A DNA stretch of 64,000 nucleotides. Origin: Atopobiaceae bacterium (lineage in GTDB: Bacteria > Actinomycetota > Coriobacteriia > Coriobacteriales > Atopobiaceae). The translations under genes were made by a program, and so were the position numbers. Every line of letters begins with the position of its first letter. Within the stretch, counting starts at the first letter, position 1. Below the pieces are notes generated by a model, which saw only the letters and a program-made list of their open reading frames with translations, searched no databases and was not told the origin of the DNA. Below are positions 41,095 to 62,877 of this stretch, one piece after another. Location of the stretch: the NCBI GenBank assembly GCA_022483015.1, contig JAKVOB010000001.1, positions 2,194,902 through 2,258,901 of the forward strand, in the 5' to 3' direction.

Positions 41095-42311
41095 TACCGC
41101 GCGTCGACCACGAAGACCGTCACGTGACCTATATCGCTTACTCCCTACGCTTGGAAAGAACCTTCTCGGCCTCATTGAGCGAGTCAAGATATGACCGCTC
41201 GACAGGGGAGACCTCCTGCACCTGATAGCGACGGTACTCCCGCTCGGCCTTGGTCATGGCCTGCTCGTGACTCACCGTTCCCGCACCCTCGAGCACATCT
41301 GCGCCTACGGTACGAATCGTATTGTCGAGCTGCTCGACATAGTCAGCCATGTAAGTGGGCAGATGACTCTGGGCACGGAACTCAGCCAGGTCGAAGAACG
41401 CTGACACGAGGTTATTCAAACGCTTGAGCTCGTCTTCCTCGAGATAGTTCTTGGCTACTCGTGTATCAGCCAAGGTCACCTGTTTGCCGGCGAATGACGT
41501 GAGGCCCATAAGAGGTCTCTCGGCATCGGCACGCTCGAATATGACCTCGGCAGCAGTATGGCCATGAGCAGCAAAATGAAGCTTGTTCTGGACCAACTTG
41601 AAGAACTCTGTGGACTCTTGAGCCTTCGGGTCGTAATCGACCGCTGTGGCTTAGAGGTCCAGGACCTGCCGATAGAGCACCTTCTCGGAAGATCGGATAT
41701 CACGAATGCGGTCGAGGAGCTCGTGCCAGTAGGAACCACCACCGCTACCCTTAAGGCGCTCATCGTTCAAGGCGAACCCTTTGACCATATACTCTTTAAG
41801 GACCGCTGTGGCCCACTGTCGAAAAGCCGTGGCACGCCTGGAGTTCACCCTATATCCCACGGATATCACAGCATCGAGGCTATACGCCGTCTTTGGACGC
41901 ATAGGAGTACCAGCGCTATTCATTTGCACTTTCTGCAAATTTCGGGTTGTGCTGGGCTCATCGAGTTCACCTTCATCGTAGATATGCATGAGATGCCGCG
42001 ATATCGTGCTCACTGACACACCAAAGAGGTCAGCCATCTGAGCCTGAGTGAGCCAGACGGTCTCGCCCAAGAGGGATACCTCGATCTTGGTAGTGCCATC
42101 AGCAGCCTCGTACATGACTATCTCGCCAGATTCGTCCATCATGTCCCTCCCCCGCCGATATCCGCAGCGAATCAGTGCCGTATAAGGCATTCCCGCCATT
42201 CCAAGGAAACGATAGCAGGCTCAGGCTCACGACCTGCCGGGGCACCACCGAAACATGCCGGGCGCCGTCAAGCGTAGCCCCTTACCGCGCGTCGACCACG
42301 AAGACCGTCAC
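41095..42311. mobile_element. RhuM cassette bounded by 29-bp direct repeats
   Basis: An identical 29-base sequence, beginning TACCGCGCGTCGACCACGAA, occurs at 41095-41123 and 42283-42311. It is the last nine codons and first stop bases of the HIRAN gene. The copy at 41095 has no gene attached. The RhuM pseudogene fills the space between. This looks like an insertion that duplicated the target gene's 3' end, or an excision site pair; no integrase is present. Confidence 0.55.
41138..42142 (-). pseudogene. rhuM: RhuM-family virulence protein gene with internal stop
   Basis: The RhuM family has a helix-turn-helix (TQAQMADLFGVSVSTISRHL) and a conserved C-terminal region with the segment LVQNKLHFAAHGHTAAEVI. 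Here the frame is intact from 42142 to 41138 except for a TAA at 41651-41653, after LYRQVLDL. Translation in the same frame resumes with ATAVDYDPKAQESTEFF, so one nonsense codon (Tyr expected) breaks the gene. The start ATGATG follows GGGAGGGAC. The function of RhuM is unknown; it is often found on mobile DNA. Confidence 0.82.
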
Positions 42312-44401: not shown

Positions 44402-44516
44402 CTACCCCAGCCCGTTGAATCTCGAGAAGAACGCCTTGAGCCGACCTACCACACGCTCCTTCATGTCCTCGTAGGCATTGTCGGAGCTGCGAAGCAATCG
44501 CCCATCAGAAGGACAT
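44402..44516 (-). pseudogene. Coding-like fragment downstream of cas2
   Basis: A reading frame overlapping the cas2 stop in a different frame encodes DNAYEDMKERVVGRLKAFF and ends at a TAG at 44402-44404. It looks like a real protein C-terminus, but no family is recognised and only about 37 codons are left. It may be the remnant of a gene deleted next to cas2. The rest of 44255-44504 shows nothing clear. Confidence 0.25.
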
Positions 44517-44825
44517 GGTCAACTGAGGTCCCAGCTCCTCATACTTCTGAGCTGGTCTTGTGTCAATGAGAATGGCCCTCTCTTCATACTGCTTCTCGGT
44601 TAACAGAAGCGCTGTTACTGCGCCCGTTGGAGGCAAGTTCGCCTTTAGCCTCTGGAGGTGAGACTGGGCTCGATCTCTCGAGGAGAGTACCCGCGAATAG
44701 ACGCTGAACTGTTCCATGTAATAGCCATCCTTGATAAGGAACTTCCTGAACTGGGCATAGGTCTTTCGTTCCGTCGAGTTGCCAGTCGGAAGGTCGAACA
44801 TCACAAGAAGCCTCATTGACCTCAT
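44505..44825 (-). CDS. cas2: CRISPR-associated endonuclease Cas2
   Basis: A 106-residue ferredoxin-fold protein that pairs with Cas1 to insert new spacers. The conserved acidic residue is in LLVMFDLPTG, and YYMEQFSVYSRVL is typical of type II Cas2. The ATG at 44825 follows AGGAGAGG; a second ATG 9 bases later is possible. It begins 8 bases after the cas1 stop, so the two are co-transcribed. No csn2 or cas4 follows, which places the system in subtype II-C. Confidence 0.95.
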   Translation of the reverse strand: MRSMRLLVMFDLPTGNSTERKTYAQFRKFLIKDGYYMEQFSVYSRVLSSRDRAQSHLQRLKANLPPTGAVTALLLTEKQYEERAILIDTRPAQKYEELGPQLTMSF

Positions 44826-44833
44826 GACCTCTC

Positions 44834-45724
44834 CTACTCGTCCGAGAACATCTGTAGCGGCACAATTGAAGGAAGAAGAAGTTCTGAATAATCGGCGTCA
44901 TAGACAGCGGCTTTGAGCGAAACGAGCATCAACTCAATGGCGGTCTGCGACGTGACGAGTCTCCCATCAAGTTTGACGAGTCGTTCAAAAACAGAAGCGA
45001 GCACGATTTTCTTCTCATGGGTGAGATCGCCTGCCAGGTGCTGTTTTACCACGATCAAGTCTACGAGCGGTCTGAACGGCTCGATGAGATCATCGACAAG
45101 ATTGAAGGCATTGAGCTCGTTATGGTGATTTAGGCCACGAGAGACGAGCCACCCGCCAGCAACTGCAGCCCGGGCGACACCCGCCCTCAGGATGTTATAG
45201 CCATAGTTTAGAGGACCAGAATAGGGCCCGATGCGTCGGTTGCCATCATCAATGAGCTCCTTGAAGTAGGCTGCCGCAGCCGCGCCCTCACGATTATCAG
45301 TATCGCCAGACTTGACCTCAGCTACATAGCGCCCTACAGAGCATGGGCTCTTCCCACAAAGCTCCAGCACACTTGCTTGATTCGTAATCTTCGCCTTTAC
45401 GATTCTCTGCCACAGACGCTTCTGCATCGGCTTCGAAATCGCAAGCTGATTCTCAACGATATCGGCATGACGTGAATGAGCGCCCAAGGGTAGGAACAAA
45501 CCGTTCGGCATATGGTCATCTCCGCATAGCATCACTCCAATTCCCCCGTCTGCAAGTTGGGACAGGGCTGCCGTTGTGATCTGTGCTTGATGCGTTTCAA
45601 GAATTACGACCCAGATGTCCTCGAAGGGCACTCTTACCTGTCGCTCATCCTGAATGATGAGCAGAGCTTTGTCACAAGCAGAAAGTTTTGCGGGAGACTG
45701 GATGCAGATCGTTCGTTTAGGCAT
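44834..45724 (-). CDS. cas1: CRISPR-associated integrase Cas1
   Basis: A 296-residue type II Cas1, the enzyme that joins new spacers to the array. Metal ligands are visible: Glu in NREGAAAAAYF, His in GLNHHNELNAFNL and the acidic residues in DDLIEPFRPLVD. The start MPKRTICIQ at 45724 is supported by GGAGG about 9 bases upstream; a longer frame to 45760 would run into the tracrRNA promoter. It lies downstream of the array on the minus strand, so it is either read through from the array or has a promoter inside the opposite-strand tracrRNA region. Confidence 0.96.
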   Translation of the reverse strand: MPKRTICIQSPAKLSACDKALLIIQDERQVRVPFEDIWVVILETHQAQITTAALSQLADGGIGVMLCGDDHMPNGLFLPLGAHSRHADIVENQLAISKPMQKRLWQRIVKAKITNQASVLELCGKSPCSVGRYVAEVKSGDTDNREGAAAAAYFKELIDDGNRRIGPYSGPLNYGYNILRAGVARAAVAGGWLVSRGLNHHNELNAFNLVDDLIEPFRPLVDLIVVKQHLAGDLTHEKKIVLASVFERLVKLDGRLVTSQTAIELMLVSLKAAVYDADYSELLLPSIVPLQMFSDE

Positions 45725-45748
45725 CGTTACTGCACCTCCAGAAAGAGG

Positions 45749-45757
45749 TATGATAAT
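45749..45757 (+). promoter_or_regulatory. Predicted -10 region of the tracrRNA
   Basis: TATGATAAT on the plus strand contains two overlapping near-consensus -10 hexamers, placed to start transcription near 45764, just before the anti-repeat. A weak TTACTG lies 16 bases upstream. The box is only about 9 bases from the cas1 ribosome site on the other strand. Confidence 0.5.
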
Positions 45758-45764
45758 CACAGTT

Positions 45765-45895
45765 TAGGCGATAGTTGTACCAACTGGGGAGTTGAGCGGA
45801 ACAAGCGCCTAGACAAGGGAATCTTCGGTTTACCGATGATTACCCGCAAGGTTAACCCGTCTCATCCTCTGGATGGGGCGGGCGATCCTTTTTCT
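45765..45895 (+). ncRNA. tracrRNA of the type II-C CRISPR-Cas9 system
   Basis: An anti-repeat at 45775-45814 matches the array repeat except for one base change, an inserted AACAA and one inserted T, so with crRNA it forms a duplex of about 35 bp with a bulge. Downstream are a nexus-like hairpin (TCGG-TTTA-CCGA at 45825-45836, extendable by ATC/GAT) and a perfect 12-bp terminator hairpin followed by TTTTT. It reads opposite to the array and cas genes. Ends are predicted from sequence; the 5' end is uncertain by several bases. Confidence 0.88.
45856..45895 (+). terminator. Terminator of the tracrRNA
   Basis: CCCGTCTCATCC and GGATGGGGCGGG form a 12-bp stem (two G-T pairs) around TCT, followed by CGATCCTTTTTCT. 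This is a classic intrinsic terminator on the plus strand. Confidence 0.9.
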
Positions 45896-46011
45896 AGGCA
45901 CCATTCCCTGAATTCCGGGCTGTAGGAGTCATATTTGAGCCTTCTAGTTACAGAATATCTTCGTTCCATACCAAAGAACCCCCTGTTCGCAGAGGGTTCT
46001 TTGGGTCAGGC
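45896..46011. other. Candidate CRISPR leader between tracrRNA and array
   Basis: These 116 bases are AT-richer than the surroundings and abut the repeat at 46012. They include an inverted repeat at 45971-46004 (CCAAAGAACCC/GGGTTCTTTGG) with an inner CTG-TTCG-CAG hairpin. Since the intact repeats lie at this end, it is the likely integration-side leader; the hairpin could also end array transcripts. Confidence 0.5.
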
Positions 46012-49000
46012 ATTGTACCAACTGGGGAATTGAGCGGGCGCCAAGACAGTGACCCATCGACGCGCTGCCAGCCGACCATTGTACCAACTGGGGAATTGAG
46101 CGGGCGCCAAGACTGGAACGTCTTCGCGAAGTTGTCCCAGTCCATTGTACCAACTGGGGAATTGAGCGGGCGCCAAGACTTGGCATCATCGATGCTGATC
46201 GTGGTCACGATTGTACCAACTGGGGAATTGAGCGGGCGCCAAGACTGTGTCGTGCCGTTCCCTCCTTGGACGACCATTGTACCAACTGGGGAATTGAGCG
46301 GGCGCCAAGACTCGTCGGGCAGTCGTAGCCGAGCTGGTCCGATTGTACCAACTGGGGAATTGAGCGGGCGCCAAGACCTCCAAGGCTGGTCCGTCTATGT
46401 CTCGAAGATTGTACCAACTGGGGAATTGAGCGGGCGCCAAGACTCTTGCGAAGCTCCACCGCACGCGCCGCGCATTGTACCAACTGGGGAATTGAGCGGG
46501 CGCCAAGACCATGCGACATCGGCGACGTGACCGGGCTCTATTGTACCAACTGGGGAATTGAGCGGGCGCCAAGACTCGATTGTCTCGCTCATTCGTCCTC
46601 CTTCGATTGTACCAACTGGGGAATTGAGCGGGCGCCAAGACTCAGCATGAGTCGGCCCCGTGCTTCTCGCGATTGTACCAACTGGGGAATTGAGCGGGCG
46701 CCAAGACGGGTAGCGGTCGAGCCAAGCTCCACCTTGAATTGTACCAACTGGGGAATTGAGCGGGCGCCAAGACCAAGACCTAGCGACACGTCTTAAAGAC
46801 CCAATTGTACCAACTGGGGAATTGAGCGGGCGCCAAGACTCCCAGGCGGGCTCGTGCGAACGCTCAGGGATTGTACCAACTGGGGAATTGAGCGGGCGCC
46901 AAGACGTGAAGTTCACATACGCAAACACCATGGCCATTGTACCAACTGGGGAATTGAGCGGGCGCCAAGACCAGACGTAGTGCCCGGCGTGCTCGCGGTC
47001 AATTGTACCAACTGGGGAATTGAGCGGGCGCCAAGACCGAGCAAGTAAGCGAGCCCCCATCATCTGCATTGTACCAACTGGGGAATTGAGCGGGCGCCAA
47101 GACTGTAGCTGGTGAACGTCCTCCGCGACACGTATTGTACCAACTGGGGAATTGAGCGGGCGCCAAGACCGTCGGAAAGAGCAGTTACGAGCGATAACAA
47201 TTGTACCAACTGGGGAATTGAGCGGGCGCCAAGACTGGCGTGAAGCAGCAGTCATACGTCTGCATATTGTACCAACTGGGGAATTGAGCGGGCGCCAAGA
47301 CAGGGTGCCTCCGTACTCTGCAACTGCGACGATTGTACCAACTGGGGAATTGAGCGGGCGCCAAGACAGCGTGTAGGTCTTGCTTCCCGTGGTGGCGATT
47401 GTACCAACTGGGGAATTGAGCGGGCGCCAAGACCGCTTGGGCAGTCGTAGCCGAGCTGGTCAGATTGTACCAACTGGGGAATTGAGCGGGCGCCAAGACC
47501 GGAACAGCCCATCGGTGCGGCCATCCACTATTGTACCAACTGGGGAATTGAGCGGGCGCCAAGACTTCCTCCACCTTATCGTCGGCTGCCATGAAATTGT
47601 ACCAACTGGGGAATTGAGCGGGCGCCAAGACGAGTCGACGATGACAGTACCGAGGCCGAGGATTGTACCAACTGGGGAATTGAGCGGGCGCCAAGACACA
47701 CGCTCTCGGTCAGGTCTGACTACCTGCATTGTACCAACTGGGGAATTGAGCGGGCGCCAAGACACACGGGATGGACCCAGCACACGCAGCGTCATTGTAC
47801 CAACTGGGGAATTGAGCGGGCGCCAAGACAAGGTGGTGGCATAGATGGCAACTGGTATCATTGTACCAACTGGGGAATTGAGCGGGCGCCAAGACTGACA
47901 CAGTCGCTCGTGTACATGTTCGCGGATTGTACCAACTGGGGAATTGAGCGGGCGCCAAGACATGTGCTTCAGGGCGTTGTTTGCGCAGTCGATTGTACCA
48001 ACTGGGGAATTGAGCGGGCGCCAAGACTCGCAGCTGGTCAGCGCCTCACGTTCACGTATTGTACCAACTGGGGAATTGAGCGGGCGCCAAGACGGTCCGT
48101 AGATCCCGAGGAGGACGCGCGATATTGTACCAACTGGGGAATTGAGCGGGCGCCAAGACTAGGTTCCGTCCGTTACCGCCGCCATCGGCATTGTACCAAC
48201 TGGGGAATTGAGCGGGCGCCAAGACGGAACGGTGGCATACACCGACGGGCAGAAGATTGTACCAACTGGGGAATTGAGCGGGCGCCAAGACTCTGCGACC
48301 TCGCGGGCCTGCTCCATGCAAATTGTACCAACTGGGGAATTGAGCGGGCGCCAAGACTATGCTTTCTCCTTCTGAGTAGCTTCGCGATTGTACCAACTGG
48401 GGAATTGAGCGGGCGCCAAGACTAAGCACGTTGATGTCGTCTGGGTCGGTGAATTGTACCGACTGGGGAATTGAGCGGGCGCCAAGACTCGCGGTCATCC
48501 TGGTCATCGAAGGTCGCGATTGTACCAACTGGGGAATTGAGCGGGCGCCAAGACCCATCAAGGCACAGGACAGGCCGGACCTCAATTGTACCAACTGGGG
48601 AATTGAGCGGGCGCCAAGACGCAGGAATGCGAGGTATCCACTCCCGCCGAATTGTACCGACTGGGGAATTGAGCGGGCGCCAAGACCTCAAGGAGAGCGG
48701 CCTGCCATGCGAGCTGATTGTACCAACTGGGGAATTGAGCGGGCGCCAAGACCTGACGCTGAGGATGCAAAGCAGCACTACCATTGTACCAACTGGGGAA
48801 TTGAGCGGGCGCCAAGACGGGGGCCTTCCTCATGCCGTGACCTCGGAAATTGTACCAACTGGGGAATTGAGCGGGCGCCAAGACTCCTTAAAGCGGACGG
48901 GTGACAGGACCTCGATTGTACCAACTGGGGAATTGAGCGGGCGCCAAGACCGCTCGAGGTAGCGTTGCTTCTGAGTCGCCATTGTACCAACTGGGGAATT

Positions 49001-49451
49001 GAGCGGGCGCCAAGACTCGCCGTTTACGAAGCTCCCGTCTCATATGATTGTACCAACTGGGGAATTGAGCGGGCGCCAAGACACGACCACCGACCCGATA
49101 TGCGCAAGTGGAATTGTACCAACTGGGGAATTGAGCGGGCGCCAAGACCTACAGCTTCCACGAGCTCGGGGGAAACCGATTGTACCAACTGGGGAATTGA
49201 GCGGGCGCCCTTAGCAGATTGTACCAACTGGGGAATTGAGCGGGCGCCAAGACCAGAGGCCGCAGAGAGGCCACCGCGCCGACATTGTACCAACTGGGGA
49301 ATTGAGCGGGCGCCAAGACGGCAGAGGTCGATGAACTCCGACTGCTTCGATTGTACCAACTGGGGAATTGAGCGGGCGCCAAGACCGAGCGTCGCGTAAG
49401 GGTTCGCCTCGGTCCATTGTACCAACTGGGGAATTGAGCGGGCGCCAAGAC
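46012..49451 (-). CRISPR. Type II-C CRISPR array, 53 repeats
   Basis: 36-bp repeats occur every 66 bases from 46012, giving 30-bp spacers (one of 29 bp at 48358-48386). On the crRNA (minus) strand the repeat begins GTCTTGGCGCCCGC and ends GTTGGTACAAT. There are 53 repeats by my count. Exceptions to identity are an A-to-G at the ninth plus-strand base in the repeats at 48453 and 48651, and a truncated repeat at 49179-49209 followed by an 8-base spacer remnant. Orientation is set by pairing with the tracrRNA and by similarity of the 3' end to Neisseria II-C repeats. The 36+30 period is divisible by three, which creates false open frames across the array. Confidence 0.98.
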
Positions 49452-49491
49452 GACCTACCGATTCATTACTCATTTGTGCGATGACGCTGAT

Positions 49492-52482
49492 TCAGCAACG
49501 ATGCCCCAGCACGTCTTCTTGTATGACGAACAGCGCAGAGTCCCTCCCCAGAGAAGAGACTGTCAATAACGGAGTAATGGCCTCGCCCGTATGCATGTCA
49601 TGAAGCTCCATATTACAGTTGGTAATACCGAATGACCAGAAACGCAGAAGCACGCCATCCAGCGAGATAACGTCTCCTCTAAACAACGTCACGGGTTTAT
49701 GCCCCATAGCAGCAAGAGGTATGGGCTCCCATTCGGTCCTTGCAACGTGATTTTTGCAAGCCCTCGGCACATATGTGCCGTTCTTTATCGCAGGAATGTC
49801 AGCGTAATAGACAGGCTCTGCATAGTACCTACCCTTGACCTTCCCGTTGGGCCGAGCGTCGGGATCAAGCCAGAGCCGTAGGAAGGCCATGCCGTCGATC
49901 AGACGAGCAGACCCATCCTCAAGTATCTCTACATTCCCCTTCTTGACCGTCTTGCCCCCTGACCTCAAGCGGCTCAGCCCGGTCTTCTCATCCGCCTTAC
50001 CTTCATAGTGGTACAGAGTATCCTCGAAAGCACGCCCCGTTACTCCATGATTGACCATGCGGGTAGGAATGACCTCTTCCCTCCTCGCCAAAACATCGTC
50101 CGCAAACGTCGGCCAAGGCTGCGTATCTGCGAGTCGGCTCTCTCTGTTTGCCTTGAATGCCTTGGCTCCGCGTGCTCGCTCTCGAGCCACCTTCTGTACC
50201 GTCGCCTCATTGCAGGCGGCGATAATTGCGGCATCAACCGCATGGTGCCGATCGTCGCTGCGGTCCTTGCTGTTGTTCTCGCCCGTGTTCAGGCCCCAAA
50301 CCCATCGCAGATTACCGGTCGCTCCGCCTGCCACCGCCAGCACGTGCTTCGTTCTACCATCGTCAGGGAACAACAGGGTGTCCTCAAGGTAACTCTTCAC
50401 AGCACGTGACATATACCGGGTGTCATTAAGGTTTCGCGCCAGAAATGCGGCTTCGTGGTCACCCTCTGCTAAATCATCGTTAAGTAGATTGCGGCGCTTT
50501 CTTGGATCCTTCACTTGCTCGATTACGCGAGCACGGTAATTTTCCCAATCTGGTGCTGACGAGTCTTCTTCCATCCACTCATAGGGAGTACGTTCGCGCT
50601 TGTCCTGATTACTCTTGGCAAGTACAAGCACCTTGTTCGCCCTACCGTCATCGCATGTCCGTGAATAAGGCAGGACATGGTCGATTTCACAATAGTGGTC
50701 CTCGCGAATCATGCGCTCATACTCGATTGTCTGCCCGGTATAAATGTCCTTGTTGCCCTGCTCGAGCCACAGACCATACATCCTGAGCAGCTTTCCTCGC
50801 ACCTCTTCTGGTGCGATGCCAAGCGACTCTCCGATGGTTTCGCTCCAGGCTTTGTTGTTTGCTTGGTTCCTTAGGTTCGACTTGGCAATCTTGGCCTTTT
50901 CCTTGCCAGACTGCTTGAGCTCCCTACCAAGTTCGATATGAATTTCGTCTGGCACACCATAAATCTTGATAATCGCATTTACGATGCGACGCATACGGCC
51001 CATGGCACGAAGGACAACGGGATTATTACACGTTGGGTCATAGAGGTAGTACGGCTCCAGCACCGTACTCTTTGTCTGCTCATGGTGAAGACGAAGGTTC
51101 AACAAGCCCGATGCCTCTTCAGCCTCGGTAAGCGTCATGACCGCAGAATCGTCAAAGGAATCGAGTAGGAGCCTGATGGCTTTGAGACTCCTGTTGCCAT
51201 AACCGCTAAACACCTTGCTTGAAAAAGGTAGCGCGGATATCGCGTTCTCGTCAGCCTCACCAAGATCAAGAGGTTCGAGCTGCGCCCTCAGACTGTCTTC
51301 CGTACTCGCATAGGTCAAGGCCTCGCCGATGGCATCGGCAAAGGAATGGTCTTGGAGCATCCTCTCCATCAGTGCGGTCGGAATACCATGTTTTCTCATG
51401 GAGCGCCACGCCTTTGGAATGAAGACCTCACTCTTCTTCTCATCATCTCGAGCAATCCCCTTAAACAGGGAACGCTCAGAGAGGTCAAGGTCCTTTCTAA
51501 TCCTGCTATAGGTGACTTTGCAGTCCTTGTTGCCTTTTATGAAGGCAGGAGAGAATAGCAGTTCGAGATATTGATCCCTCTGGTCGGAAGTGAGTCTCTT
51601 CTCGTCTCCAGACTCCTCAACAATCACAAGGTGACCGAGACGCTCATAGGCCCTGCAAAGCTCTGAGGAAAGATCCGCGTTGGCGGCCCGGCGCTCGTCC
51701 TCGAAGTAGACGCACTTCCCTACCTGTGAGTACACCTTGGCATCATGGCCAAGCGTCTCCTTTTCCCATTGCATGCAGGAGATGTATTCATCTACCAAGT
51801 TGGATGAAACCTTGGGGTTTCCCAGCCGCTCCTGCGCTTGCAGAAGCTGTCGCGCCTCTTCTGCCAACTGGCTATTGAGGACACACAACTCATATTTGCC
51901 AGACTTGTTGCGAGACTCGCCCCTCGCGTTGAGCATCTCGCCGACGGTTCTATATCCATTGGCCTTCATTAGGGCAGCATTCTCTTGAACAGCCTTGAGA
52001 ACCTTGCCATCTTCCTCGCTTACAAGACCCTCGTCAGCACTTGCTGCATCAACATGTCCAATACCGTGCGGAATATAACCACGCCTACCAGATAGGGAAT
52101 AGAGGACCTGGGCAAGCTCTCTGTCGCTGAGAAGTTGGTCAAGACCGCGAGCTCTTAGCTTTAGAGTGGGTCGATCTCCCGGCTTAGTTTGAAACCACTG
52201 TTTGTCAGCCGTTTGTGGAACGAGCCCATATTGAACAAGGATCTTAAGACAGTGCTTCTGACGGTTCTTCGTACGCTCGTTGTTCCTTCGAATGCTCCGG
52301 GCATTCCTTCGTACGACGGCAAGGCTCGTATGGGTCTTATCCGTTTGCGGCGTATCAAAAAGATGGGAGCCCATCTCGAGAATTTTATGATTATCCATAT
52401 CAAGGAGCGCGAATCCGCAGCTCGCGATACCTGGGTCGAGACCCAGAACATAATATGGGCGCACCTCATCGTTCTTGGCCAT
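49492..52482 (-). CDS. cas9: CRISPR-associated endonuclease Cas9, type II-C
   Basis: A compact Cas9 of 996 residues. Counting from an ATG three codons earlier (52491), the parts are: RuvC-I GLDPGIAS with Asp19, an Arg-rich bridge helix at about 60-88 (RRNARSIRRNNERTKNR), a recognition lobe, RuvC-II HIELGRE with Glu520, HNH EIDHVLPYS with Asp604-His605, RuvC-III HHAVDAA with Asp753, then a PAM-interacting C-terminus. All nuclease residues are intact. The second ATG (52482) is preferred because AGGGG overlaps the first one and lies 9 bases before the second. The gene ends 40 bases before the array and is divergent from the NERD gene. PAM preference cannot be read by eye. Confidence 0.97.
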   Translation of the reverse strand: MAKNDEVRPYYVLGLDPGIASCGFALLDMDNHKILEMGSHLFDTPQTDKTHTSLAVVRRNARSIRRNNERTKNRQKHCLKILVQYGLVPQTADKQWFQTKPGDRPTLKLRARGLDQLLSDRELAQVLYSLSGRRGYIPHGIGHVDAASADEGLVSEEDGKVLKAVQENAALMKANGYRTVGEMLNARGESRNKSGKYELCVLNSQLAEEARQLLQAQERLGNPKVSSNLVDEYISCMQWEKETLGHDAKVYSQVGKCVYFEDERRAANADLSSELCRAYERLGHLVIVEESGDEKRLTSDQRDQYLELLFSPAFIKGNKDCKVTYSRIRKDLDLSERSLFKGIARDDEKKSEVFIPKAWRSMRKHGIPTALMERMLQDHSFADAIGEALTYASTEDSLRAQLEPLDLGEADENAISALPFSSKVFSGYGNRSLKAIRLLLDSFDDSAVMTLTEAEEASGLLNLRLHHEQTKSTVLEPYYLYDPTCNNPVVLRAMGRMRRIVNAIIKIYGVPDEIHIELGRELKQSGKEKAKIAKSNLRNQANNKAWSETIGESLGIAPEEVRGKLLRMYGLWLEQGNKDIYTGQTIEYERMIREDHYCEIDHVLPYSRTCDDGRANKVLVLAKSNQDKRERTPYEWMEEDSSAPDWENYRARVIEQVKDPRKRRNLLNDDLAEGDHEAAFLARNLNDTRYMSRAVKSYLEDTLLFPDDGRTKHVLAVAGGATGNLRWVWGLNTGENNSKDRSDDRHHAVDAAIIAACNEATVQKVARERARGAKAFKANRESRLADTQPWPTFADDVLARREEVIPTRMVNHGVTGRAFEDTLYHYEGKADEKTGLSRLRSGGKTVKKGNVEILEDGSARLIDGMAFLRLWLDPDARPNGKVKGRYYAEPVYYADIPAIKNGTYVPRACKNHVARTEWEPIPLAAMGHKPVTLFRGDVISLDGVLLRFWSFGITNCNMELHDMHTGEAITPLLTVSSLGRDSALFVIQEDVLGHRC

Positions 52483-52630
52483 ACAAGTCATCCCCTATGG
52501 AAGACGTCGTTGATACGCCTATCGTAGCCCTTTGGTTCAGGTCTATTCCGATAGACTGAATTTGTGGTTACGACGTCCGCGCGCCAGCCCAGTTCTGCCA
52601 TCTTTAGCGGATTTCACAAGGAGGTTCCCC

Positions 52631-53575
52631 ATGTCCCTCTTCTCACACCCTGAGCCAGTCTTCGCCAAGGAGGGTTCCTCGGCCACCGACGAGCTCGCCC
52701 AGATGCAGGCCCTTCTCCCCCGCATTGCTCCGTCCGACCGTTGGCGCCTCGAACGTGACATCCACATCAAGAAGGCAGGCATCGACGGCGAGGATGAGAT
52801 CACCTTCCAACTCAGGAACTCGCACCTCCCCATCTATGTGATCCACGACCTCAACCTCGAGCACGGCGACCTCTCGAGCCAGATCGACTTCCTCGTGATC
52901 GCGCCCTACGTCAATGTCGTCATCGAGTGCAAGAAACTCACCGGTAACATCACGGTCGACGACCAAGGGCAGTTCATCCGCAACTTCGACCGTGACCACC
53001 GGCACGTCCGCGAAGGCATCGAGTCGCCCATCTCGCAGAACAAGCGACACCTCGAGCTTCTGAGGTCCATCCGTCTCTCAGAGAAGGGTACGATCGGCCG
53101 CATCGCCTTTGACCATTGGTTCGATGACCTCTACGACTCCGTCGTGGTGCTGGCTAACGACAGGACCGTCCTCAACGACCGCTACGCGCCACGCGAGATC
53201 AAGGACCAGATCATCCGCGCCGACACCCTCATCGACTACCTGGGTCGCGCCAACGAAGCAGGCAAGAAGGCTGGCAACGGCAGAAGTTCCGACAAGGACA
53301 TGCGCGAGGAAGCCGAGCGCTGGCTCACGCATGACATCCCCAGCAATCGAAACGTCACCTCGGGATACCAGCTGGCCGATGCCGCGGGCGTGGCGCAGAC
53401 GAACATGCCGGCCACCAGTGGCAGCGTTGCCGTAGCCGAGGGCGTCCCCCTCTGCCCCGACTGCGGTGCGCCCATGGTAAGGCGCACGGCCAAGAAGGGG
53501 CCACATGCCGGCGAGCCCTTCTGGGGCTGCAGCCGTTGGCCGGACTGCAAGGGCATCGTAGACATCGTCAAGTGA
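52631..53575 (+). CDS. NERD-domain protein with C-terminal topoisomerase-type zinc finger
   Basis: A 314-residue protein. An N-terminal NERD nuclease-related domain shows SSQIDFLVIAPYVNVVIECKKL, with the Asp and Glu-x-Lys of PD-(D/E)xK-type folds. A C-terminal zinc ribbon of topoisomerase type follows (CPDCGAPM...WGCSRWPDCKG), which binds nucleic acid. NERD proteins are thought to act in DNA processing or defence; nuclease activity here is unproven. AGGAGG lies before the ATG. It is divergent from cas9 with about 150 bases shared upstream. Its 3' end is copied at 58733. Confidence 0.88.
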   Translation: MSLFSHPEPVFAKEGSSATDELAQMQALLPRIAPSDRWRLERDIHIKKAGIDGEDEITFQLRNSHLPIYVIHDLNLEHGDLSSQIDFLVIAPYVNVVIECKKLTGNITVDDQGQFIRNFDRDHRHVREGIESPISQNKRHLELLRSIRLSEKGTIGRIAFDHWFDDLYDSVVVLANDRTVLNDRYAPREIKDQIIRADTLIDYLGRANEAGKKAGNGRSSDKDMREEAERWLTHDIPSNRNVTSGYQLADAAGVAQTNMPATSGSVAVAEGVPLCPDCGAPMVRRTAKKGPHAGEPFWGCSRWPDCKGIVDIVK

Positions 53576-58860: not shown

Positions 58861-61800
58861 TCACGCCCTGCGACGGGCCAGTGCCGCTCCTGCAAGGGCC
58901 ATGAGCGCACCGAGCACCGCGACGCCTGCCGCCGAATGGTCGTTCTCGCCCGTAGTGGGCAGGACGGTGGCCGAGGAGACCGGCGCCGCCGAGGGCGTCT
59001 CGGCAGACGAAGCGTCCGAGGTCGCCGCCGGCGTCTCGGCAGAAGGTGTCGTGGGTGTCGTGGGTGTGGTGGACGACGTGGGTGTGGTGGGCGACGTGGG
59101 CGCCGCACCACCGGTGATGACGAAGGTGCCCGACAGCCCGCCGGTGAAGCGTCCCATGCCCGTGACGGTCACCTTGGCCGTGCCCGCCTCGACGTTGTCC
59201 GCATACGAGACCGTGTAGTCGACTCCCTCGGTGAGCACCTGGGAACCAAACCTCACACTCACCGCGGGCGTCAGCGCCTTGCCGGTGTAGCCCTGGTCGG
59301 CGATCGCGTCGATGGTCGCCTCCGCCATGTCGACCGCATAGGTGTCCGCCGCCGTGGAGGAGAAGACACGGTTGGGAGCCTCGACGGTGCCCGCCAGCAC
59401 ATAGAGGGTCCCGTCATAGGCGCACGCCGCGGGTATCAGCAGCGCCTTGTCGCTGGCGCGCTTGGCATACTTCGTCGGCTCCGCGCCATCGGCCGACATC
59501 AGGTAGGTATCCGCCGTCGGCGTGCCCGCGGCCTCATTGCTCAGCGGACCGGCGAAGATGAATCCGGAGGTCACGGTCGCCGGGGCAAAGCACAGCTGTC
59601 CGGTGTCGGTTATCAGGTTCCAGGCCTCCGCCTTCGCGCTCGCCAGGGAGCCGTCAGGTTGCACGACCTGCCTCTCCATGCCGTTGACGGCCGCGCCCTG
59701 GTTGTCGGCGTTCCAACCGTTCGTCACCAGGAACGTCCCTCTGTTGTCGTATGCCACACGGGGGCATTGGCCTGGAGTCGACAACGTGCCCACCTGAGTG
59801 AACGCACCGGTCCTCACGTCCACCTTCCAGATGCCGTCGTAGCTCTGGGAGCCTACCGCCTTGGAGCTGTCCAGGCCACCGAACAGATAGAGCGAGGTTC
59901 CATCCGAGGCCAGGCTCGCATAATGGATGCTCTCGCATCCCTCGAACGTCCAACCCGTCTGTGCCCAATTGCCTGCCGCGTCCAGGGTGATGATGCTCTT
60001 GACATAGTTGTCATCAACCAGCGCCTCTACGTACACGTACATCCGTCCCCGGACCACCGCGGCGGAATACATATATGCCCCGTCGCCGCTCACAGGGATA
60101 TCGACCTGCTCCCAGGACTGCGAAGCGGGGTCATAACGCAGCAGGTGATCATATGTCCTCAACGTCGCCGTCTGCGGCAGGCAGTAGACATAGCCGCCGA
60201 AGCCCACCAGCTGCCAGCCGGTCCAATCGGCCATCTCGTCGGGATAGGGCATCTCGACGTTGTCGTAATAGGTGAGGTCCTTGGCTTGGTTCAGATATGC
60301 GACCAGGTTGCCGGTCTTCCCGTTGGTGCCGACCACTTGAATGCGCGCATCACCGCCCTCGAAGCCGGCGGGCAGTGCCACTTCCACGCTGGACTTATCG
60401 TCGCCCAGGTCGGTGCAGGACAGGACGCTCGCCTGCGTGCCGTCGATGCTGACGGTGGGATTCGACCCGAAGAAGTACCCCGTGATGGTGGCGGTCGAGC
60501 CGGTCGAGGTCGCAGAGGTCGGCGTGGCCGTCGGGTCGGCGGACGCGTCCAGCGCAATCCTGCCGCTACTCAGGCAAAGGTTCTCATAACGGGAATCGTA
60601 GGTGGTCGACCCCTTGACCAGGGCCGCCAGCTTCTCTGCTGAGGCGGTCGGATTGTCCTCCGCCAGCACCGCAGCCACTCCGGCCACAGCAGGGCATGCC
60701 ATCGAGGTGCCCTGATCGTACGTATACGGTACGCGCGTCGATCCCAGCCCGATGCTGTCCACGCAGAGCGTTCCTGCCACCTTGTTTTCCTGATACACCC
60801 CGCCGACCTTGGCACCATCGACCATCAGGTACGATATCTCGATCTGAAAATGCGCCCAGTCGGTGTCAGCCGGCAGGTCAACGTACTGCCCACCCCAGGC
60901 ATCGCCCGACATATTGAAAGCACCCTCCGCAGCCAAGTCCTTGAAGGACCCGTCCGTGCAACGGACGCTCACCTTCAAACCGATCTCCAGCGGTGTGTTC
61001 GCATCGTCAGGGATGGCGGAGTAGCGAATGCTCAGGTATTTTGGCTTAGCGGAGAGAGCGGACAGGTCCACCTCATTGGAGGTCGCATCGGCCAACCCAG
61101 GACTGGTGACCGGATCGTAGGCCAGGCCGATGCTTCTGTCCCCCTCGAACGACCGTGTGGTCACGGTGGTCTCGCCCGGGAACGAGAAGAGGTTGCCGGC
61201 CGAGGGCTGGACGGAGGCATCGAAACGGCTGCTTGCGTCGAAGCTCTCGTAGACCGTGGTGTCAGCCAGGTTCGCCTCGCCCAGGAAGCTGGGCTCAGCT
61301 GAGAGCACCGTGGACAGGACGGTGGCACCCGAGGCGAGCACGTCGGTGGTCGAGACCCCATAGTTGCTGAAACCGGACAGCGCCCCCGTGGGTCCTATGC
61401 TGTCCACGACGACGGCATAGGGGTTCTGGGCCAGGTTGGTCGCGTTCGTCGAGGTGGACGAGAGATCAGAGTCATCGTTACCCGACGCGAAGACGGATAT
61501 CGCACCAGCCTGCCCCATCTGGGTGACGGCGACGGAGATGCTGCGCGATCCGTCCAGCCCCGTGCCCCAGGAGTTGCTGACGACCCTCACGTTCACGCCC
61601 GCGTCCAGCGCCGTCCTCACATAGGCGAACGCCTGGATGTAGGAAGCCGTCGTCCCCTCAGGGACCAGCGCCATGATGCGTGCGTCCTGTGACACACCCG
61701 AGGTGCCCTGACCGTTCCACTCGGCTCCGATGACACCGGCGCAATGGGTGCCATGATTGATCTGCAGACCCGTGGTGGAAGACGTCACGCTGGGATTGTC

Positions 61801-62646
61801 GGACCAGCCGCATGCGTCACCACCCAAGGCGACCAGGCTGGGATAGCTCATGCCATCGCGCCACATCTTGTTGGTCAGGTCGGGGTTGGTCTCGTCGACG
61901 CCAGTGTCGATGACCGCGACGACGGGCCCGTCTCCCACGCCCGTCGTGGAGTCCCATGCGGCGTAGTCGATGTCGATGCCTGCCGTGCCGCTTCCGCCCC
62001 AATGGCCGTCGTTCTTCTCGCCCCACTGGAATGCGGTCAGGTCGGAGCAGGTCGTCAGGCCCTGCCCGTCGACGGTCGTCGGCTCGTCGGCCTCCCCCGT
62101 GACCGTCTGGTCCAGCGTCTCCTGCAAGGTGAGCTGCGAGGTGGTCTGCGACGTGTCCTCGTCATCGGAGGAGACGTAGAGGTTGGGCTCCGCGAAGACC
62201 ACGCGTGAGTCGGCCTGGAGCTCGTCGATGAGCTGCTCGGTGGTCTTCGAGGCGTCGCGCACCAGCACGAGGCGCTGGGTCGCATCCGCCGTGGCAGACT
62301 GCACCACGGCCTGCTCCTGGGTGGTGAGGTTGCCGGTATCGCACTCGCTCGTCACGGCGTCGTCAGATACGTCCATCAGGGTCGTGGCCGACGAGAGCAG
62401 GTCGTCGGCCTGGGTGCTCAGCCCCTCGCCGCCCACCGAGGAGACGACCAACGCGATGGCCTCGCCTTCCGCATAGGTCCCTGACTCGTAGCCGAAGGTG
62501 GTCGAGCCGGTGTCCGCCGAGGCCGCGCTCGCCTGACGAGCCGACATGACGGGCACGAGCAGGCCCGCCAGGGCCACGACGAGCAGCACGCAGGCACACC
62601 GACGGACCAGGCGATGGTGATGGCGGACGCGTTTCCCGACTACCAT
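58861..62646 (-). CDS. Cell-wall-anchored subtilase (S8 protease)
   Basis: A 1261-residue surface protease. Parts in order are: signal peptide (VLLVVALAGLLVPVMSARQASA), propeptide, S8 catalytic domain with Asp in VVAVIDTGVDETN, His in NHGTHCAGVIG and Ser in DQGTSMACPAVAG, an inserted beta domain between His and Ser, an IPT/TIG-like domain, a kelch-like propeller region, a Ser/Thr/Pro stalk, and a sortase signal LPTTGE with hydrophobic helix and RRRA tail. The ATG at 62646 has AAGGGG 6 bases upstream. It probably processes host or bacterial surface proteins. It is monocistronic. Confidence 0.92.
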   Translation of the reverse strand: MVVGKRVRHHHRLVRRCACVLLVVALAGLLVPVMSARQASAASADTGSTTFGYESGTYAEGEAIALVVSSVGGEGLSTQADDLLSSATTLMDVSDDAVTSECDTGNLTTQEQAVVQSATADATQRLVLVRDASKTTEQLIDELQADSRVVFAEPNLYVSSDDEDTSQTTSQLTLQETLDQTVTGEADEPTTVDGQGLTTCSDLTAFQWGEKNDGHWGGSGTAGIDIDYAAWDSTTGVGDGPVVAVIDTGVDETNPDLTNKMWRDGMSYPSLVALGGDACGWSDNPSVTSSTTGLQINHGTHCAGVIGAEWNGQGTSGVSQDARIMALVPEGTTASYIQAFAYVRTALDAGVNVRVVSNSWGTGLDGSRSISVAVTQMGQAGAISVFASGNDDSDLSSTSTNATNLAQNPYAVVVDSIGPTGALSGFSNYGVSTTDVLASGATVLSTVLSAEPSFLGEANLADTTVYESFDASSRFDASVQPSAGNLFSFPGETTVTTRSFEGDRSIGLAYDPVTSPGLADATSNEVDLSALSAKPKYLSIRYSAIPDDANTPLEIGLKVSVRCTDGSFKDLAAEGAFNMSGDAWGGQYVDLPADTDWAHFQIEISYLMVDGAKVGGVYQENKVAGTLCVDSIGLGSTRVPYTYDQGTSMACPAVAGVAAVLAEDNPTASAEKLAALVKGSTTYDSRYENLCLSSGRIALDASADPTATPTSATSTGSTATITGYFFGSNPTVSIDGTQASVLSCTDLGDDKSSVEVALPAGFEGGDARIQVVGTNGKTGNLVAYLNQAKDLTYYDNVEMPYPDEMADWTGWQLVGFGGYVYCLPQTATLRTYDHLLRYDPASQSWEQVDIPVSGDGAYMYSAAVVRGRMYVYVEALVDDNYVKSIITLDAAGNWAQTGWTFEGCESIHYASLASDGTSLYLFGGLDSSKAVGSQSYDGIWKVDVRTGAFTQVGTLSTPGQCPRVAYDNRGTFLVTNGWNADNQGAAVNGMERQVVQPDGSLASAKAEAWNLITDTGQLCFAPATVTSGFIFAGPLSNEAAGTPTADTYLMSADGAEPTKYAKRASDKALLIPAACAYDGTLYVLAGTVEAPNRVFSSTAADTYAVDMAEATIDAIADQGYTGKALTPAVSVRFGSQVLTEGVDYTVSYADNVEAGTAKVTVTGMGRFTGGLSGTFVITGGAAPTSPTTPTSSTTPTTPTTPSAETPAATSDASSAETPSAAPVSSATVLPTTGENDHSAAGVAVLGALMALAGAALARRRA

Positions 62647-62877
62647 GGCATTCCCCTTCAAGACGAGGACCGTGTCACTTCACTGACGGGCGAGGCACTC
62701 AAGCCTTTGTTCAGGCGATTCTATCATTCTGGCATCGTGCAGGCGTTATGTCTGCCAGCGGTGCCACGAACGCGTCGAGCGGGTCGGGCTTCTCGGCGGG
62801 AGGGGCCGAGGGTGGGGCGGCAATGCCAGGCACGCACGAGACCGACGTCCTTCTCGGCTGGAAGACCCGTTGATCGG

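What the first reader, a model, noticed from the sequence alone, without database searches (positions are those of the whole stretch)
44505..52482. Compact type II-C CRISPR-Cas9 locus with the array between cas9 and cas1
All parts are present and look intact: Cas9 with RuvC and HNH residues, a 53-repeat array, tracrRNA, cas1 and cas2, with no csn2 or cas4. The usual II-C order keeps cas9-cas1-cas2 together with the array outside. Here the 3.4-kb array splits cas9 from cas1-cas2, and the tracrRNA sits between array and cas1 on the other strand. The 996-residue Cas9 is small, and its PAM is not known from this sequence.
Basis: partly seen in the sequence, partly recalled or inferred. Interest (0 to 1): 0.75.

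Follow-up and report, generated by a model that had tools for sequence, protein, structure and literature searches.

The report
Type II-C CRISPR-Cas9, rearranged gene order
This is a complete, ordinary CRISPR-Cas9 immune system of a gut-type actinobacterium (class Coriobacteriia); its only oddity is that the spacer bank, guide-RNA gene and spacer-acquisition genes appear to have flipped as one block next to cas9, giving an order that also arose separately in Slackia and Collinsella.

Summary
It is a type II-C system. The order cas9>array>cas1>cas2 is unusual. In about 45 II-C loci outside Coriobacteriales with cas9, cas1 and an array, none has the array between cas9 and cas1. The eight nearest relatives (Atopobiaceae and allies, Cas9 56-62% identical) read cas9> <cas2 <cas1 <array. 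One inversion of the array-tracrRNA-cas1-cas2 block turns their order into the window's. The same final order occurs in Slackia faecicanis, another Slackia and Collinsella aerofaciens. Cas9 and Cas1 trees place these apart from the window, and an AU test rejects a single clade, so the order arose at least twice. RNase III is present. The locus is AT-richer than the chromosome (53% vs 67% GC), as in relatives. No convincing protospacer was found, so the PAM stays unknown. Mechanistically ordinary; interest modest.

The parts
49492..52482 (-). cas9, 996 aa, intact RuvC I-III and HNH; C-terminal domain present in the model
   Evidence: AlphaFold model pLDDT 77.5 aligns to residue 996 with ThermoCas9 (Z 24.6) and Nme1Cas9 (Z 24.0)
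46012..49451 (-). CRISPR array, 53 repeats of 36 nt, 51 full-length spacers (one of 29 nt, the rest 30); oldest end next to cas9, newest next to tracrRNA (inferred)
   Evidence: altered repeats (units 5, 13, 16) all lie in the cas9-proximal third; II-C arrays grow at the last repeat (PMC12080349)
49179..49214 (-). 5'-truncated repeat left by an internal deletion of about 27 bp covering most of one spacer and the start of the repeat
45971..46004 (-). 15-bp hairpin 7 nt after the last repeat: probable array terminator / leader border
   Evidence: 18-22 bp stems at the same place in six relatives with other sequences; similar hairpins in many other II-C loci
45763..45892 (+). tracrRNA (start estimated from the -10-like TATGATAAT at 45748-45756); anti-repeat 45774-45809; terminator stem 45856-45882 plus T run
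   Evidence: fold z -4.7; duplex -65 kcal/mol
44834..45727 (-). cas1, type II (listed ORF begins at 45760)
   Evidence: TIGR03639, 239.7 bits
44505..44825 (-). cas2, type II
49452..49491 (-). 40-bp junction between cas9 stop and first repeat: presumed rearrangement breakpoint, no terminator found
   Evidence: window Cas9 lacks the last residues (about 10-20) carried by relatives

Best explanation
This is a complete type II-C CRISPR-Cas9 immune system. Cas1-Cas2 insert spacers at the array end beside the tracrRNA. Each repeat ends in an extended -10-like motif (TGGTACAAT), so crRNAs are probably started inside the array, as in Neisseria and Campylobacter. They pair with the tracrRNA, are trimmed by host RNase III and guide a compact Nme/ThermoCas9-like Cas9 to cut DNA with an unknown PAM. 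The gene order arose by one inversion of the block array-tracrRNA-cas1-cas2 relative to cas9. As a result the array now lies 40 bp downstream of cas9 on the same strand and may also be read from the cas9 transcript. Shown: parts, integrity, repeat/anti-repeat match, order in relatives, separate placement in trees. Inferred: expression, polarity of growth, inversion as the event, activity.
For: Families and residues are intact and the fold matches II-C Cas9s over the whole chain. The repeat/anti-repeat duplex is unique in the window outside the array, and across relatives each repeat generally pairs best with its own anti-repeat; L031's -29.9 comes from a mis-set extraction window. RNase III is in the genome. 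The eight nearest relatives read cas9> <cas2 <cas1 <array with tracrRNA antisense upstream of cas1; inverting that block gives the window's order and all orientations. Two more distant relatives (L072, L099) also have convergent cas9 and cas2-cas1 and branch near the base. Trees put the window with the near relatives (8-row set starred 99/99; 91/95), and the Slackia/Collinsella order is a separate origin (AU p = 8e-84).
Against: No RNA data and no protospacers. No inverted repeats longer than 10 bp flank the block, so the inversion mechanism is not seen. The array is visible in only five of the eight nearest relatives, the others being cut by contig ends or a truncated cas1. The Cas1 tree is weakly resolved around the window. 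The promoter scan found no sigma-70 sites by its strict rule, so the repeat-promoter reading rests on the extended -10 motif alone.
Confidence: 0.8

Rival explanations
1. cas9>array>cas1>cas2 is the ancestral order of the Coriobacteriales clade, kept in the window and in Slackia/Collinsella, while the relatives with convergent cas9 are derived.
For: The same order is found in at least three loci of a second clade.
Against: Both basal branches (L072, L099) and all eight near relatives have the convergent order; the window is nested among them, so retention would need several parallel inversions.
Confidence: 0.1
2. cas9 alone was moved or replaced, rather than the array-cas1-cas2 block inverted.
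For: The end product is the same; Cas9 ends shorter than its relatives at the new junction.
Against: It needs excision plus reinsertion in the opposite orientation; Cas9 and Cas1 have the same nearest group, so there is no sign of replacement.
Confidence: 0.2
3. The system is a decaying or silent relic.
For: One deletion inside the array; no matching phage found in any collection searched.
Against: All genes are open with catalytic residues; 50 of 53 repeats are identical; the array is long and varied; the tracrRNA is intact.
Confidence: 0.05

Closest known systems
II-C loci of Olsenella sp. KH3B4, Atopobiaceae UBA1367 and rumen Coriobacteriaceae genomes (L094-L098, L100, L106, L107)
   Same: Cas9 56-62% identical, same repeat 3' end (CCCCAGTTGGTACAAT), tracrRNA antisense between array and cas1
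   Different: cas9 convergent with cas2, array at the far end
II-C loci of Slackia faecicanis DSM 17537, Slackia sp., Collinsella aerofaciens (L105, L102, L108)
   Same: same gene order and orientations; tracrRNA in the same place
   Different: Cas9 only about 46% identical, other repeat family, separate clade
Neisseria meningitidis Nme1Cas9 and ThermoCas9/GeoCas9 II-C systems
   Same: Cas9 fold over the full chain, 36-nt repeats (own knowledge for Neisseria), presumed promoter in each repeat
   Different: classical order cas9-cas1-cas2-array with the array transcribed towards cas2; about 25-28% Cas9 identity

Membership tests
Type II CRISPR-Cas | Cas9 with RuvC and HNH nuclease residues | tested here: met
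Type II CRISPR-Cas | repeat array plus tracrRNA with anti-repeat matching the repeat | tested here: met
   (sequence only)
Type II CRISPR-Cas | crRNA and tracrRNA expressed and processed by RNase III | not testable with these tools
   RNase III gene present; no RNA data
Subtype II-C | cas1, cas2 and cas9 only; no csn2, no cas4 | tested here: met
   on neighbouring genes; rest of genome not searched for csn2 or cas4
Subtype II-C | Cas9 groups with II-C Cas9s (Nme, Geo, Hpa, Thermo) | tested here: met
   best solved matches are II-C Cas9s by sequence and fold; no tree with II-A and II-B was made
Subtype II-C | promoter in each repeat and spacer gain at the last repeat | tested here: inconclusive
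   TGGTACAAT at repeat end and altered repeats in the cas9-proximal third fit; not shown
Subtype II-C | cas9-cas1-cas2 contiguous with array outside (usual, not defining) | tested here: not met
   array lies between cas9 and cas1; usual order in about 45 other loci
Subtype II-C | PAM-dependent cutting of phage or plasmid DNA | tested here: inconclusive
   no convincing protospacers

The most novel reading that the evidence does not exclude
Array, tracrRNA, cas1 and cas2 behave as one cassette that flips or moves relative to cas9, and the flip has a function: it places the array directly behind cas9 so that one transcript yields both Cas9 mRNA and pre-crRNA, an arrangement reached at least twice in Coriobacteriales.
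Probability: 0.15. Interest if true: 0.5.

Novelty: new member of a known kind. Interest (0 to 1): 0.3.

Why it matters
The system adds a compact Cas9 lineage (Coriobacteriales, about 1000 aa, 36-nt repeats) with a complete predicted tracrRNA; I found no mention of it in the papers I searched, and its PAM is unknown. The order shows that II-C modules can be rearranged without losing parts, and that in this clade the tracrRNA stays with cas1 rather than with cas9. It does not change how CRISPR-Cas9 is understood to work.

Tried and rejected
PAM from spacers: blastn of the whole array against phages and plasmids gave only chance-level hits (E 3-4). The spacers against 140 family genomes gave one 26/30 match in G075 with three of four mismatches at the PAM-proximal end. 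Eight scans of IMG/VR (a degenerate core of spacers 31/48, six two-spacer union patterns, one 24-nt newest-spacer pattern) gave two hits, both with 7 or more mismatches to any spacer. Rfam found no RNA family at its gathering threshold. The first genome-contig scan with the single protein found nothing; the alignment query worked. Synteny with the only same-genus genome could not be set up: the probe gene had only 38-40% homologues there. A clade-specific special role for the hairpin after the last repeat was rejected, since comparable terminator hairpins follow the last repeat in many other II-C loci; my stem finder misses hairpins starting more than 4 nt from the repeat, including the window's. 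The phrase search for published cas9-array-cas1 orders was dominated by Cas12 papers and proves nothing.

Full report
The window is part of a 2.28-Mb single-contig genome. On the minus strand they read cas9 (996 aa), array (53 repeats), cas1, cas2; the tracrRNA lies on the plus strand between array and cas1. The Cas9 hits TIGR01865 far above its cutoff, carries all RuvC and HNH residues in an alignment of 13 relatives, and its model aligns from end to end with ThermoCas9 and Nme1Cas9. Cas1 and Cas2 are type II. No csn2 or cas4 is nearby.

The tracrRNA is well supported. The anti-repeat (+45774-45809) pairs with the repeat at -65 kcal/mol; outside the array no other site in 64 kb is better than about -42. 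In relatives the anti-repeat sits in the same place and changes together with the repeat, so that each repeat generally pairs best with its own anti-repeat (the L031 value is not meaningful because the extraction window was wrong). It is followed by two hairpins, the last with a T run. RNase III is encoded elsewhere in the genome.

Repeat and polarity. The repeat ends in TGGTACAAT, an extended -10 motif. Feussner et al. 2025 (PMC12080349) state that II-C repeats each carry a promoter, that new spacers enter at the last repeat, and that the first repeat is the oldest and most often mutated. In the window the truncated repeat and the two point-mutated repeats all lie in the third nearest cas9, and the 37 repeats nearest the tracrRNA are identical. 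This fits growth at the tracrRNA/cas1 end but does not prove it.

Gene order. In the 80 best Cas9 relatives from named genomes, about 45 loci outside Coriobacteriales show cas9, cas1 and an array; all but one (L129, arrays upstream of cas9) read cas9-cas1-cas2-array, and none has the array between cas9 and cas1. Within Coriobacteriales and allies three other orders occur. Most, including the eight nearest to the window, read cas9> <cas2 <cas1 <array; the array itself is seen in five of these eight. Slackia faecicanis, another Slackia and Collinsella aerofaciens read cas9>array>cas1>cas2, like the window (in C. aerofaciens the contig ends inside cas1); a Collinsella sp. contig ends inside the array. 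Thermophilibacter mediterraneus reads cas1>cas2>cas9>array. Wherever the region upstream of cas1 is held, the tracrRNA lies there antisense to cas1.

Origin of the order. On Cas9 trees the window falls among the convergent-order loci, with L072 and L099, also convergent, near the base. The Slackia/Collinsella loci form a separate, fully supported group with Thermophilibacter. Forcing all cas9>array>cas1>cas2 loci into one clade is rejected (AU p = 8e-84). The Cas1 tree agrees that the window is outside the Slackia group but resolves little else. Inverting the block array-tracrRNA-cas1-cas2 in the convergent order gives exactly the window's order and orientations. The junction is 40 bp from the cas9 stop, and this Cas9 lacks the short tail of its relatives. 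No long inverted repeats mark the ends.

Consequences. Between cas9 and the first repeat the scan shows no terminator, so cas9 transcripts may run into the array in the crRNA direction. This is inference. The locus has 52-58% GC against 67% in the first 40 kb of the window, which could mean horizontal gain; however, the relatives' cas9 genes are also 6-12 points below their upstream flanks, so low GC is a trait of the family too. The only other genome of the genus held here has no Cas9 match.

Targets. No spacer has a convincing match in phages, plasmids, 140 family genomes or the IMG/VR patterns tried. The PAM cannot be given. Spacers 31 and 48 share a 23-nt core with different ends, which suggests two samplings of related targets.

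Verdict: a sound II-C system, new as an individual, with a rearranged order that is rare overall but recurrent in this bacterial order. Mechanism expected to be ordinary.

Noticed in passing
41138-42199 (-): RhuM-family gene (Pfam Virulence_RhuM; PADLOC candidate defence PDC-S05) in two pieces in different ORFs, so probably broken.
   Followed up: partly
44405-44495 (-): Short stretch just after cas2 that reads RSSDNAYEDMKERVVGRLKAFFSRFNGLG* and may be the end of a lost gene.
   Followed up: no
52532-53575 (+): NERD-nuclease-related protein with a Top1-type zinc ribbon, divergent from cas9.
   Followed up: partly
45971-46004 and L094, L095, L096, L097, L104, L107 after the last repeat: Near-perfect 18-22 bp hairpins of different sequence abut the last repeat in relatives; in the window the lower part is lost (15 bp, starting 7 nt away). 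Probably terminators, but tightly fixed to the presumed site of spacer insertion.
   Followed up: partly
47434-47463 and 46312-46341 (spacers 31 and 48): Two spacers share 23 identical nucleotides but differ at both ends, as if taken from related phages at the same site.
   Followed up: partly
L076/L108 (Collinsella aerofaciens) and L030/L100: cas9 is matched in two overlapping pieces, suggesting a frameshift in these copies.
   Followed up: no
58861-62661 (-): 1266-aa surface protease (subtilase, kelch repeats, LPXTG anchor).
   Followed up: no
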